Part shown: positions 3,463-62,071 of the stretch, piece by piece
Layout: the number at the start of each line of letters is the position of its first letter
Position numbering within the stretch: position 1 is the stretch's first letter
DNA from: Streptomyces rapamycinicus NRRL 5491
GTDB taxonomy: Bacteria > Actinomycetota > Actinomycetes > Streptomycetales > Streptomycetaceae
Assembly (NCBI RefSeq): GCF_024298965.1
Contig: NZ_CP085193.1
Coordinates: 5,766,001-5,830,000 of the forward strand
DNA length: 64,000 nucleotides
Direction: 5' to 3'
Notes under the pieces: model-generated
The model's input: only the letters and a program-made list of their open reading frames with translations
Told to the model about the DNA's origin: nothing
Databases searched by the model: none
Program-made: the position numbers and the translations under genes

Positions 3463-3490
3463 GGCCGGTCCTCAGGCCGGTCCTCAGGCC
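3463..3490. repeat. 12-bp tandem repeat containing the purL stop codon
   Basis: Two exact copies of GGCCGGTCCTCA (3463-3474, 3475-3486) are followed by a partial third. The last TCA (3484-3486) is the complement of the purL TGA stop. This is one of a series of stop-codon repeats in the window. Confidence 0.85.
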
Positions 3491-5733
3491 AGCAGACCCG
3501 GGATCGTCGCCTCGTACGACTCCCGCAGCTCGGCCAGCGGGATGGAGAACTGCCCCTGGACGTCGATCGCGTCGCCGTCGACCACGCCGATACGGGCCGC
3601 CGGGAGCCCCCGGGCCCCGCACATGTCGTTGAAGCGGACCTCCTCGCTGCGCGGTACGGCGACGATCGCCCGGCCCGCGGACTCGGAGAACAGCAGGACG
3701 AAGGGGTCAAGACCGTCGGGGACGACGATCCGGGCGCCCTTGCCCCCGCGCAGACACGACTCGGCGAGCGCCTGGATCAGACCGCCGTCGGACAGGTCGT
3801 GGGCCGCGTCCACCATGCCGTCGCGCGAGGCCGAGATCAGGATCTCGGCGAGCAGCCGCTCCCGCTCCAGGTCCACCTTGGGCGGCAGTCCGCCCAAGTG
3901 GTCGTGGATCACCTGGGACCAGGCCGAGCCGCCCAGCTCCGCGGCGGTGTCGCCCAGCAGATAGAGCAGCTGACCCTCCTCCGCGAAGGCGATCGGGGTG
4001 CGGCGGGCCACATCGTCGATCACGCCGAGGACGGCGACGACCGGCGTCGGGTGGATGGCCACCTCACCGGTCTGGTTGTACAGCGACACATTGCCGCCGG
4101 TGACCGGGGTGCCCAGGGTCAGACAGCCGTCCGCGAGACCGCGGGTGGCCTCCGCGAACTGCCACATGACCGCGGGGTCCTCCGGCGAGCCGAAGTTGAG
4201 ACAGTTGGAGATGGCCAGTGGCTTGGCGCCGGACGCGGCCACATTGCGGTACGACTCGGCGAGCGCGAGCTGCGCGCCCGCGTACGGGTCCAGCTTGGCG
4301 TAGCGGCCGTTGCCGTCCGTGGCGACGGCCACACCCAGGCCGGTCTCCTCGTCCACCCGGACCATGCCGGAGTCCTCGGGCTGGGCGAGCACCGTGTTGC
4401 CCTGCACGAAGCGGTCGTACTGGTCCGTGATCCAGGACTTGGACGACTGGTTCGGGGAGCCGATCACCTTGAGGATCTGCTCGCGCAGCTCCGCCGCCGT
4501 GGCCGGGCGCGGCAGCTTGCCCGCGTCGTCCGCCTGGAGCGCGTCCTGCCACTCGGGGCGGGCGTAGGGGCGCTCGTAGACCGGGCCCTCATGGGCGACG
4601 GTGCGCGGCGGGACGTCCACGATCTGCTCGCCGTGCCAGTAGATCTCCAGCCGCTCGCCGTCGGTGACCTCACCGATGACAGTGGCGATGACGTCCCACT
4701 TCTCGCAGATCTCCAGGAAGCGGTCGACCTTCTCGGGCTTCACGATCGCGCACATGCGCTCCTGCGACTCACTCATCAGGATCTCCTCGGGGGAGAGCGA
4801 GGAGTCGCGCAGCGGCACGGTGTCGAGCTCGACCCGCATACCGCCGGAGCCGGCGCTGGCGAGCTCGCTGGTGGCGCAGGACAGGCCCGCGCCGCCGAGG
4901 TCCTGAATGCCCTCGACCAGGTCCTCCTTGAAGACCTCCAGGGTGCACTCGATGAGCAGCTTCTCCTGGAAGGGGTCGCCGACCTGGACGGCGGGACGCT
5001 TGGTGGGCTTACTGTCGTCAAACGTCTCGGAGGCCAGCACGGAGACGCCGCCGATGCCGTCGCCGCCGGTGCGGGCGCCGTAGAGGATCACCTTGTTGCC
5101 GGTGCCGGACGCCTTGGCGAGGTGGATGTCCGCATGCTTCATCACGCCCACGCACAACGCGTTGACCAGCGGGTTGCCCTGGTAGCAGGGGTCGAAGACG
5201 ACCTCGCCGCCGATGTTGGGCAGGCCCAGGCAGTTGCCGTAGCCGCCGATGCCCGCGACCACACCGGGCAGCACCCGCTTGGTGTCGGGGTGGTCGGCGG
5301 CGCCGAAGCGCAGCGGGTCCATCACGGCCACCGGGCGGGCGCCCATGGCGAGGATGTCGCGGACGATGCCGCCGACGCCGGTGGCCGCGCCCTGGTAGGG
5401 CTCGACGTACGAGGGGTGGTTGTGCGACTCGACCTTGAAGGTGACCGCGTAGCCCTGGCCGACGTCGACCACACCCGCGTTCTCGCCGATGCCGACGAGC
5501 AGCGCGTCGCTCTCGGGGGCCTTCTCACCGAACTGCCGCAGATGGACCTTGCTCGACTTGTACGAGCAGTGCTCGGACCACATGACGGAGTACATCGCGA
5601 GCTCGGCACCGGTGGGGCGGCGGCCCAGGATGGCGCGGACGCGCTCGTACTCCTCCTGCTTGAGACCGAGCTCGGCCCAGGGCTGCTCGGCCTCCGGGGT
5701 CTGCGCCGCGTGCTTGGTGGTGTCCAGGGTCAT
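3484..5733 (-). CDS. purL: Phosphoribosylformylglycinamidine synthase subunit PurL
   Basis: PurL is the ATP-dependent synthase subunit that makes FGAM from FGAR with ammonia passed on by PurQ. PurS bridges the subunits. The protein has 749 residues, the size of the small, unfused PurL, and so needs the separate PurQ and PurS encoded just upstream. Recognisable segments include [15 protein letters not shown] near residue 50, [21 protein letters not shown] near 100 and the second-half motif [10 protein letters not shown]. Its start overlaps the purQ stop by 4 nt, which indicates translational coupling in a purS-purQ-purL operon. Confidence 0.98.
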
Positions 5734-6410
5734 GCGCTGACCAGCCTCTTGAGGATCGAGGTGAAGAATCCGAGACCGTCGGTGCGACCGGTGCCGATCA
5801 GCGGTTCGACGGCGTGCTCGGGGTGGGGCATGAGGCCGACGACATTGCCCGCCGCATTGCAGATACCGGCGATGTCGCGGAGCGAGCCGTTGGGGTTGAG
5901 CTCCTGATAGCGGAAGACCACGCGTCCCTCGGCCTCGAGTTCATCGAGGACGCGCTCATCGGCGACATAGCGGCCGTCGATGTTCTTCAGCGGGATGTTG
6001 ATCTCCTGGCCCCGCTCATAGGAGCGCGTCCAGGCGGTCTCCGCGTTTTCCACTCGCAACTTCTGATCACGGCAGATGAAGTGCAGATGGTTGTTCCGAA
6101 GCATCGCACCGGGCAGGAGATGGGTCTCGGTGAGTACCTGGAAGCCATTGCAGATGCCAAGCACCGGCATACCGGCCTTCGCCTGGTCGATCACCGAGTC
6201 CATTACCGGGGAGAAGCGGGAGATCGCTCCGGCCCGCAGATAGTCGCCATAGGAGAAGCCGCCCGGCAGGATCACCGCGTCGACCTGCTTGAGGTCCTTG
6301 TCGCGGTGCCACAGCGGTACGGCTTCCAGTCCGGCGGCGCGGACGGCGCGCTGGGTGTCGCGGTCGTCGAGCGTGCCGGGGAAGGTGATGACTCCGACGC
6401 GTGCGGTCAC
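5730..6410 (-). CDS. purQ: Phosphoribosylformylglycinamidine synthase subunit PurQ (glutaminase)
   Basis: PurQ is the class I glutamine amidotransferase of the FGAM synthase complex. It hydrolyses glutamine and feeds ammonia to PurL. In its 226 residues the nucleophile lies in VLGICNGFQ, the catalytic His/Glu pair in [12 protein letters not shown] near the C-terminus, and the family N-terminus is [14 protein letters not shown]. It overlaps purS (start 6410, purS ends 6407) and purL by 4 nt each, so the three subunits are probably made in step. Confidence 0.98.
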
Positions 6411-6691
6411 GACTCCGCCTTCACGGCAGTGGCGTCGGCGCCCTCGCCGGCCTCGACCTTCACGGAAAAGTCCTCGATCACGGTGTTCGCCAGAAAAGTC
6501 TCGGCGATCTGGTGGATACGGGCGAGGGCGGCGTCATCGACCGGGCCCTCCACCTCGAGTTCAAAGCGCTTGCCCTGACGGACGTCGGCGATCCCCTCGA
6601 AACCGAGGCGGGGCAGTGCTCGCTGCACCGCCTGGCCCTGGGGGTCGAGGATCTCCGGCTTGAGCATGACGTCGACTACGACGCGTGCCAC
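6407..6691 (-). CDS. purS: Phosphoribosylformylglycinamidine synthase subunit PurS
   Basis: PurS is the small structural subunit of FGAM synthase that holds PurL and PurQ together. I place the start at the GTG at 6691 (94 residues, [19 protein letters not shown]), because this is the usual PurS N-terminus and a GGGAGT ribosome binding site stands just before it. A longer frame open to 6736 would add 15 unrelated residues. The C-terminus carries a short alanine-rich extension ([13 protein letters not shown]). It is the first gene of the purSQL operon. A 16-bp inverted repeat at 6754-6769 lies in its promoter region. Confidence 0.96.
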
Positions 6692-6993
6692 TGGCACTCC
6701 CGGTGGTGTGGTGCTGGTGCGTAAGGCGGTGCCCAAGCGTACCCCGGGTCAAAATCTACGCGAGTAGATATGCAAGGGTTCGGTCACGTTTAAGCATCGC
6801 CGGTGGCAACTGACGGGGAAAGGTCGGGGAAAAACGTACGGTCCCGATCGCGGGGTGACACGCGGATGGAATTACTGGGGTTCACAATGCAATGCCAGTC
6901 ACTGTACAAATGAAAAAGCATTGTTGGACACAACTGGACAGCTGACATCTTTGCACGTCAACGCAACGATGCAGCCCGAAAGGACCGATATCC
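6692..6993. promoter_or_regulatory. Divergent, AT-richer promoter region between purS and lsrL
   Basis: This 302-bp gap serves purS to the left and lsrL to the right. It is visibly poorer in GC than its surroundings, especially 6751-6780 and 6870-6960. It contains the palindrome at 6754-6769 and a spaced inverted repeat ACAATGC (6884-6890) / GCATTGT (6918-6924). Lsr2-type proteins prefer AT-rich DNA, so lsrL may bind its own promoter. That is inference. Confidence 0.55.
6754..6769. promoter_or_regulatory. Inverted repeat upstream of purS, candidate operator
   Basis: ATCTAC-GCGA-GTAGAT is a perfect 6-bp-arm inverted repeat, 63 bp before the purS start codon. The size and symmetry suit a dimeric repressor such as a purine regulator. 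I did not find the same motif in front of purF, purC, purD or purA in this window, and I cannot name the regulator. Confidence 0.5.
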
Positions 6994-61511: not shown

Positions 61512-61533
61512 CTCGCGAACGCCACTCCTCTGG

Positions 61534-61571
61534 CCTTAGGTTCTGGACCATGCCTTAGGTTCTGGACCATG
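61534..61571 (+). repeat. Exact 19-bp tandem duplication of a start-codon module
   Basis: CCTTAGGTTCTGGACCATG occurs twice without spacer (61534-61552, 61553-61571). Each copy contains a -10-like TAGGTT followed 7 nt later by ATG. The second ATG (61569) starts the gene. The first is out of frame by one base. Confidence 0.9.
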
Positions 61572-61973
61572 TCCGTCGATCCCCGCAACCCCGATCCCGA
61601 GTACCTCGCTTTCTGGCGCGAACGCCATGTGTGCACCCTGACCACCCCACGCCCGGACGGCACCCCGCATGTGGTCCCGGTCGGCGTCACCTACGACCCC
61701 GAGGCCGGGCTCGCCCGCGTCATCGCGAACCGTCACAGCCGTAAGGTCGCCCATGTCCGGGCGGCGGGCGAAGGCGGTGCGCGAGTCGCGGTCTGCCAAC
61801 TGGCGGGCAGGCGGTGGGCCACGCTGGAGGGGCTCGCGGTGGTACGGGAGGAGCCCGAGCTGATCGCCGACGCCGAACGCCGCTACGCCGAGCGCTACCA
61901 GCGCACCCCCCGCCCCAACCCGGACCGCGTCGTCATCGAGATCGCCCTCACCCGGGCCATGGGCCGGGGCTGA
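61569..61973 (+). CDS. PPOX-class (pyridoxamine oxidase-like) F420/FMN-binding protein
   Basis: A 134-residue split-barrel protein of the actinobacterial F420-dependent PPOX family. FWRERHVCTLTTPRPDGTPHVVPV is the N-terminal signature, with ATLEGLAVV in the middle and YAERYQRTPRPNPDRVVIEI near the end. It probably reduces or oxidises a small molecule with F420 or FMN. No ribosome binding site precedes the ATG. The duplicated -10 box suggests a leaderless message. It is divergent from clpB across the HAIR site. Confidence 0.88.
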   Translation: MSVDPRNPDPEYLAFWRERHVCTLTTPRPDGTPHVVPVGVTYDPEAGLARVIANRHSRKVAHVRAAGEGGARVAVCQLAGRRWATLEGLAVVREEPELIADAERRYAERYQRTPRPNPDRVVIEIALTRAMGRG

Positions 61974-62071
61974 GGCCCGTCACTCCTGCTGGCTTGAAGC
62001 CCTGGCCCGAGGCCCGTCACTCCCCTCGGCCCGGGGCCCGTCACTCCCCTCGGCCCGGGGCCCGTCACTCC
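61972..62071. repeat. 24-bp tandem repeat spanning two convergent stop codons
   Basis: Units of CGRGGCCCGTCACTCCCCTC plus GGCC at 62008, 62032 and 62056, with a decayed copy at 61972. The oxidase-like TGA (61971-61973) and the transporter stop (62065-62067) both fall in copies. Confidence 0.88.

What the first reader, a model, noticed from the sequence alone, without database searches (positions are those of the whole stretch)
3463..62071. Short tandem repeats nucleated at stop codons of many unrelated genes
At least ten genes have tandem or direct repeats that include their own stop codon and spread downstream: purL (12 bp), lsrL (19), purD (13), the SLATT gene (21 bp unit, 33 bp period), P450 (14), DUF3151 (14-15), pyrE (12-16), epimerase (14), spermidine-synthase-like (21 x10), PIG-V-like (20 x5), and the oxidase/MHS pair (24). 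Sequences differ between genes, so these are not copies of a mobile element. The shared property is position. Each unit usually carries a TGA, so the arrays supply stops in several frames. A stop-linked mutational process or selection for backup stops, transcript ends or ribosome release could explain this.
Basis: seen in the sequence. Interest (0 to 1): 0.75.

Follow-up and report, generated by a model that had tools for sequence, protein, structure and literature searches.

The report
Tandem duplications at Streptomyces gene ends
Many genes in this Streptomyces stretch end in short, fast-changing tandem DNA repeats that run across the stop codon; they are real, but they look like harmless duplications tolerated in the free DNA just after genes rather than a device tied to the stop codon.

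Summary
In detail: all eleven named repeats exist, and Tandem Repeats Finder (TRF) arrays fully cover the stop codon of 10 of 52 called genes in the window. In a 2.0-Mb sample of the genome without the window, 78 of 1599 stops are covered (strict detector 35). Shuffling the DNA after 700 stops leaves 0.8 arrays instead of 45. TRF array starts are 2.25 times denser from -10 to +20 around the stop than further into the spacer, but the stop itself is not special: it falls anywhere in the first unit (KS p 0.16-0.75), unit lengths ignore the reading frame, second stops are not specially preserved, and arrays wholly between genes carry no extra TGA. The arrays change fast: at the strict threshold none of seven window arrays is found at the same stop in G100, though diverged copies remain at some. 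The first ~50 bp after stops is also where substitutions and indels are commonest. Best reading: short tandem duplications, frequent in two ~71% G+C actinomycetes, persist in unconstrained spacer DNA and reach back over the stop because the first copy keeps the protein intact. A roughly two-fold excess of indels per substitution in the first 25 bp leaves room for a modest 3'-end mutational bias.

The parts
3455..3490 (-). 12-bp x3 array across the purL stop (3484-3486)
   Evidence: TRF. No strict array at this stop in G100, G059, G073, G184; a 14-bp array in G169. Diverged copies of the motif are visible in G100, and S. endocoffeicus (L041) has a different, longer repeat there
7306..7343 (+). 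19-bp x2 array across the lsr2 stop (7309-7311)
   Evidence: TRF; Pfam Lsr2; no strict array in five relatives, diverged copies visible in G100
15862..15897 (-). 13-bp x2.8 array across the purD stop (15885-15887)
   Evidence: TRF; Pfam GARS domains; G169 has its own 27-bp array there
18280..18333 (+). 21-nt direct repeat (copies at 18280 and 18313) starting at the stop (18283-18285) of the SLATT_2 gene
   Evidence: read from sequence; Pfam SLATT_2
   Evidence: TRF; Pfam; G073 has a 27-bp array at this stop
32886..32941 (-). 14-bp x4 array across the P450 stop (32933-32935)
   Evidence: TRF; Pfam; diverged copies in G100
39704..39747 (-). 15-bp x2.9 array across the DUF3151 stop (39735-39737)
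   Evidence: TRF; Pfam; longer 14-bp array in G100
43076..43106 (-). 16-bp x2 duplication across the pyrE stop (43101-43103)
   Evidence: TRF; G100 has one copy of the unit
43691..43752 (-). 14-bp x4.4 array across the stop of an aldose-epimerase-like gene (43749-43751)
   Evidence: TRF; Pfam; irregular related repeats in G100 and G169
45845..46076 (-). 21-bp x11 array across the stop of the spermidine-synthase-like gene (46059-46061)
   Evidence: TRF; at up to 2 mismatches the unit is found in the genome only inside this array; no strict array at this stop in the four relatives with an ortholog
57994..58077 (+). 20-bp x4.2 array starting inside the stop (57993-57995) of a PIG-V-like gene
   Evidence: TRF; Pfam (21.7 bits, below the 22.4 cut-off)
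62003..62074 (-). 24-bp x3 array in the convergent spacer, across the stop of the sugar/MFS transporter gene (62065-62067)
   Evidence: strict detector; Pfam; G059 has its own 24-bp array on the other gene's stop

Best explanation
These are short tandem duplications (10-45 bp units, sometimes expanded) that arise at many places in this ~71% G+C genome and are kept mainly where they do no harm. Shown: the fastest-evolving spacer DNA is the first ~50 bp after a stop codon; TRF arrays are densest there; they are remodelled between close relatives; their left edges lie anywhere within about one unit upstream of the stop. Inferred: a duplication that takes in the last codons and the stop is silent because the first copy still ends the protein at the same codon, so arrays reach back over the stop but rarely further, and the stop codon plays no active part. 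Which mutational process makes them (slippage between short repeats, or gap-filling at staggered breaks) is not resolved here.
For: Genome sample without the window: strict arrays start at a nearly even rate from inside the last codons into the spacer, with only 3 starts between -150 and -16 at 705 stops; TRF arrays peak from -10 to +20. Stop position within the first unit is uniform: n=32 p 0.75, n=72 p 0.50, n=70 p 0.16. Period is frame-independent. Copies 1 and 2 differ least in coding columns (29 of 385) and most in downstream columns (77 of 594), as expected if only copy 1's coding part is constrained. Turnover: 140 ortholog pairs between G000 and G100, strict arrays at stops in 10 and 9, at the same stop in 2; 0 of 7 strict window arrays has a strict array at the G100 ortholog. 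Substitutions and indels both fall with distance from the stop. TRF array density: convergent 1.98 per kb, co-directional 1.58, divergent 0.59; co-directional near the 3' end 2.8 against 0.71 near the next start. No dependence on replication direction at stops with at least 50 bp of spacer (36 of 573 against 31 of 440, p 0.70). Nonomuraea has a similar density.
Against: Indels per substitution are about two-fold higher in the first 25 bp after a stop than further on (co-directional 0-25 against 25-125 bp odds ratio 2.24, p 0.0006; convergent 0-25 against 25-75 bp 1.78, p 0.02, on counts rebuilt by hand from the rates; three genome pairs pooled and not independent; co-directional bins beyond 125 bp were left out and range from 0 to 0.143; gap placement beside the conserved gene end is ambiguous). 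In the single pair G000-G100 the 0-40 against 40-160 bp contrast was 1.42, p 0.11 (substitution counts by hand). With the whole 0-85 bp spacer as baseline, stop-covering TRF arrays exceed expectation (47 against 29.2, p 0.0015). An earlier, smaller strict count that included the window did show a peak at -10 to -1 (15 starts against about 6 per 10 bp). In convergent spacers density still falls beyond 75 bp. Diverged copies of the same motifs at some G100 and S. endocoffeicus stops mean that some arrays are remodelled old ones, not new. A published S. ambofaciens mutation-accumulation study reports only 1-4 bp indels in wild type (9 of 156 mutations; PMC11109965, passages seen).
Confidence: 0.7

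Rival explanations
1. A mutational process linked to gene 3' ends (transcription termination, ribosome release, strand breaks) makes tandem duplications two-fold or more often just after stops, on top of relaxed constraint.
For: Indel-to-substitution ratio raised about two-fold in the first 25 bp; TRF array starts 2.25 times denser from -10 to +20 (80 in 30 bp against 77 in 65 bp, p 5e-7); density falls with distance even in convergent spacers. A Ku gene, taken as the marker of end joining (recalled), is present.
Against: Substitutions rise in the same zone, so relaxed constraint covers most of it; no preferred distance to the stop; no effect of head-on or co-directional replication; strict arrays show no clear peak once the window is left out.
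Confidence: 0.2
2. Selection keeps the arrays as backup stop codons.
For: Units that cover a stop repeat it, giving stops in several frames; the second stop is intact in 51 of 70. TRF periods lean weakly to multiples of three (32, 23, 17 of 72 for remainders 0, 1, 2).
Against: In the trimmed set unit length mod 3 is 29, 19, 22 (p 0.32); stop columns are not clearly better kept than downstream columns (22 of 200 against 77 of 594 differ); purely intergenic arrays have no excess of stop triplets; rapid gain and loss.
Confidence: 0.02
3. The arrays act as transcription terminators or RNA-stabilising 3' ends.
For: Array RNAs fold more stably than plain dinucleotide shuffles (mean z -1.17, n=33, against -0.18 at array-free stops, n=99, p 0.01); array units tiled twice are slightly more stable than unit-sized pieces at array-free stops (p 0.03).
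Against: Against shuffled units tiled the same way the median z is 0.01 and 9% of 35 lie below -2, not different from intergenic arrays (p 0.60); at purL and P450 the array sits between the stop and a separate inverted repeat (read by eye); arrays are rarely shared between relatives.
Confidence: 0.04
4. Copies of a mobile or interspersed repeat family inserted at stops.
For: Common position at unrelated genes.
Against: Unit sequences differ and contain the host gene's own last codons; the one unit searched in the whole genome occurs only in its own array.
Confidence: 0.01

Closest known systems
Bacterial minisatellites / VNTRs and other short tandem repeats
   Same: Head-to-tail units of 10-45 bp, variable presence and copy number between relatives
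   Different: Most here are short (2-4 copies) and the reported feature is their position at gene 3' ends
Mycobacterial interspersed repetitive units (MIRU)
   Same: Actinobacterial repeats at gene borders that leave the neighbouring protein intact (PMC12548453, one passage seen)
   Different: MIRUs are described there as apparently mobile and inserted at start codons; here each locus has its own unit made from local DNA
52-nt and 20-21-nt tandem repeats of Bacillus (PMC8161180, passages seen)
   Same: Non-coding tandem repeats whose sequences differ between loci
   Different: The Bacillus repeats have fixed unit lengths; here lengths spread from 11 to 42
De novo tandem duplications in penA of Burkholderia thailandensis (PMC4169377, passages seen)
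   Same: Short local duplications, some attributed to slippage between direct repeats
   Different: Those were selected inside a coding region; these lie where they leave the protein unchanged
Satellites in prokaryotes survey (PMC6749651, passages seen)
   Same: Its table lists Streptomyces coelicolor with 38 satellites
   Different: The term 'stop codon' does not occur in its main text

Membership tests
Minisatellite-like tandem repeats | adjacent head-to-tail copies of a unit of about 10-60 bp | tested here: met
Minisatellite-like tandem repeats | copy number or presence differs between close relatives | tested here: met
MIRU | one homologous repeat family at many loci | tested here: not met
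   units differ and contain local coding ends; the 21-bp unit is found only in its own array in the genome
Bacillus-type constant-length repeats | constant unit length with variable sequence | tested here: not met
   periods 11-42, broad
   uniform phase, KS p 0.75, 0.50, 0.16
   47 observed against 29.2 expected from the 0-85 bp density but about 48 expected from the 0-20 bp density (by hand from the profile)
Backup stop codons | in-frame second stop enriched and preserved | tested here: not met
   mod 3 29, 19, 22; 18 of 70 in frame and intact; stop columns differ 11% against 13% downstream
Replication slippage or end-joining product | observed new mutation with short homology or fill-in signature | not testable with these tools
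   needs mutation-accumulation data

The most novel reading that the evidence does not exclude
High-G+C filamentous actinomycetes have a mutational process that makes 10-45 bp tandem duplications preferentially at gene 3' ends (at least two-fold over neutral expectation), so that gene ends are remodelled faster than any other part of the genome.
Probability: 0.2. Interest if true: 0.6.

Novelty: new member of a known kind. Interest (0 to 1): 0.3.

Why it matters
About one gene in twenty in the sampled part of this Streptomyces, and a similar share in Nonomuraea, ends in a tandem array across the stop (78 of 1599; 15 of 268). That explains a pattern that looks functional to the eye, warns against reading repeats at stops as regulatory signals, and offers many fast markers for telling strains apart. 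The residual indel excess right after stops is a concrete question that mutation-accumulation sequencing could settle.

Tried and rejected
Backup-stop selection, terminator function, mobile repeat family and replication-transcription conflict were tested and not supported. A first copy-to-copy mismatch count suggested that coding columns diverge more than downstream ones (35 of 244 against 9 of 272); that used untrimmed array edges, and after trimming the order reversed. A first divergence profile aligned without a downstream anchor showed flat substitutions and an indel peak at 0-30 bp; it was replaced by anchored alignments. Ten literature searches ran. Among the rows listed (for example 20 of 59 papers, 20 of 10,654, 15 of 25), judged by title and start of abstract, none was about tandem repeats at bacterial stop codons as such; two searches returned nothing, and most subscription journals are not held, so this is weak evidence of absence. 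Gene ends come from my own codon-usage gene caller, not from an annotation, and were not checked against one; missed small genes would put some 'intergenic' arrays inside genes. The window was left out of the genome-wide counts and counted apart; it is included, (8 of 70), and. Four of the 65 indel events lie at the alignment edge. Low-complexity units (internal period up to 6) were dropped by the strict detector. In one search, 135 of 392 genomes were not scored, so G100 is the closest of the 257 scored.
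Full report
What was checked. The window is from a chromosome of 12.47 Mb (G000:C1:5766001-5830000); its purL is closest to Streptomyces endocoffeicus (99%) and S. coffeae (95%) among the 80 loci listed.

How common. Without the window, 35 of 1599 stops are covered by a strict array and 78 of 1599 by a TRF array. Shuffling the 100 bp after 700 stops leaves 0.8 stop-covering arrays on average against 45. 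The window itself has 7 (strict) and 10 (TRF) of 52 and is an outlier (p 0.0002 and 0.0003). Its region shares part of this: five relatives have 30 of 287 there by TRF against 78 of 1599 in the sample (p 0.0005), and 12 of 287 by the strict detector (p 0.06).

Is it the stop? In TRF data array left edges rise sharply at about -10, stay high to +20 (80 in 30 bp) and then fall to about half (77 in 65 bp; p 5e-7). In the strict data the profile across the stop is nearly flat; an earlier, smaller strict count with the window included had shown a peak at -10 to -1. The stop's place inside the first unit is uniform in three versions of the count (n=32, 72, 70; p 0.75, 0.50, 0.16). Expected stop-covering TRF arrays are 29.2 from the 0-85 bp density, 47 seen (p 0.0015); from the 0-20 bp density I get about 48 by hand. 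So arrays favour gene ends, not the stop codon as such.

Backup stops? Period mod 3 is 29, 19, 22 for remainders 0, 1, 2 (p 0.32). In TRF data it is 32, 23, 17 of 72, a weak lean to multiples of three that codon periodicity can give. The second stop is intact in 51 of 70, in frame and intact in 18 of 70; stop columns differ in 22 of 200 comparisons against 77 of 594 downstream and 29 of 385 coding. Arrays wholly between genes have no extra stop triplets (18% against 22% of random pieces; 143 array-by-gene cases, 114 distinct arrays). RNA folding is unremarkable once repeats are compared with shuffled repeats, though not against a plain shuffle.

Age and turnover. At the strict threshold none of the seven window arrays has a counterpart at the orthologous stop in G100, the closest of 257 genomes scored; proteins are about 97% identical in the wider block (median). 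The five relatives have strict arrays at 2 of 53, 3 of 54, 4 of 59, 3 of 59 and 0 of 62 stops of their own. Diverged copies of the same motif can be seen by eye in G100 at purL, lsr2 and P450, and S. endocoffeicus has another, longer repeat at its purL stop, so some arrays are remodelled rather than new. Over 264 kb and 140 ortholog pairs, G000 has strict arrays at 10 stops, G100 at 9, both at 2. Of 65 length differences of 8 bp or more in 60 aligned spacers, 23 have a tandem duplication in the longer allele. The pyrE end shows the step: one copy in G100, two in G000.

Why there? In 60 G000-G100 spacers substitutions run at 0.18-0.26 in the first 60 bp and at 0.07-0.14 between 100 and 160 bp; indels fall from about 0.02 to mostly below 0.012 per site. 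Four-fold sites near the ends of the same genes differ by 0.076 (544 of 7125). In 63 co-directional spacers (three genome pairs pooled) substitutions fall from 0.224 to 0.05 and indels from 29.5 to 5-7 per kb over 150 bp, and substitution is lowest (0.064) in the 25 bp before the next start. TRF array density follows: convergent 1.98 per kb, co-directional 1.58, divergent 0.59; within co-directional spacers 2.8 near the 3' end, 0.71 near the 5' end. So gene ends open onto the least constrained spacer DNA seen here. A duplication whose first copy keeps the stop leaves the protein unchanged, which explains why arrays reach back over the stop by up to about one unit and rarely further.

What remains. 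Indels per substitution are about two-fold higher in the first 25 bp than further on (odds ratios 2.24 and 1.78, counts rebuilt by hand from the rates; bins beyond 125 bp left out and variable). Stronger selection against indels than substitutions in terminators and promoters, or gap placement next to the conserved gene end, would give this, but so would a modest 3'-end mutational bias. Replication direction has no effect (36 of 573 co-directional against 31 of 440 head-on; origin placed at dnaA). A mutation-accumulation study in S. ambofaciens reports 9 indels of 1-4 bp among 156 wild-type mutations (PMC11109965, passages), so the rate of new long duplications is not known to be high.

Who else. 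Nonomuraea gerenzanensis (71% G+C) has 15 of 268 stops covered by TRF arrays and a strict spacer density of 0.695 per kb, like G000 (0.598). Rhodococcus pRHL1 has 1 of 168 (2 by the strict detector; 0.126 per kb), S. meliloti pSymB 3 of 333 (0.014 per kb), a 50-kb piece of Cupriavidus pHG1 0 of 34 and a 50-kb piece of E. coli 0 of 45, both without a strict array. Sixty-five Streptomycetaceae loci around purL have 18 of 451 by TRF and 6 by the strict detector; six purL loci of other actinobacteria have 0 of 44. The abundance goes with very high G+C actinomycetes in this small comparison; G+C, lineage and replicon type are not separated, and most controls are plasmids.

Verdict. Real, widespread in the genome sample and fast-changing, but best read as ordinary tandem duplications tolerated in free 3' spacer DNA. 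A 3'-end-linked mutational bias of about two-fold is the boldest reading the data leave open.

Noticed in passing
window 8041-8522: A 27-bp x3 array followed by a roughly 320-bp array of 17-bp units with 117/134-bp higher-order periods lies between two tRNA genes; the spacer after lsr2 is 1462 bp here and 479-705 bp in five relatives.
   Followed up: partly
window 17566-18285: A 239-aa protein matching SLATT_2 (effector domain linked to nucleotide-signalling defence systems; the role is recalled, not tested) stands among housekeeping genes.
   Followed up: no
window 48609-48902: About six diverged copies of a 20-bp unit beside a CCG-rich stretch that may be the end of a small protein; gene limits unclear.
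   Followed up: no
L240-L249 (G000 block) and L250-L259 (G100 block): At two orthologous stops both genomes carry a strict array (periods 31/31 and 13/19 bp), the second with different unit lengths.
   Followed up: no
L041 3' end of purL (about 5248-5322): S. endocoffeicus has its own repeat at the purL stop, different from the window's.
   Followed up: partly
L265-L270 (NZ_LT559118): Nonomuraea gerenzanensis shows a spacer array density like that of this Streptomyces.
   Followed up: partly
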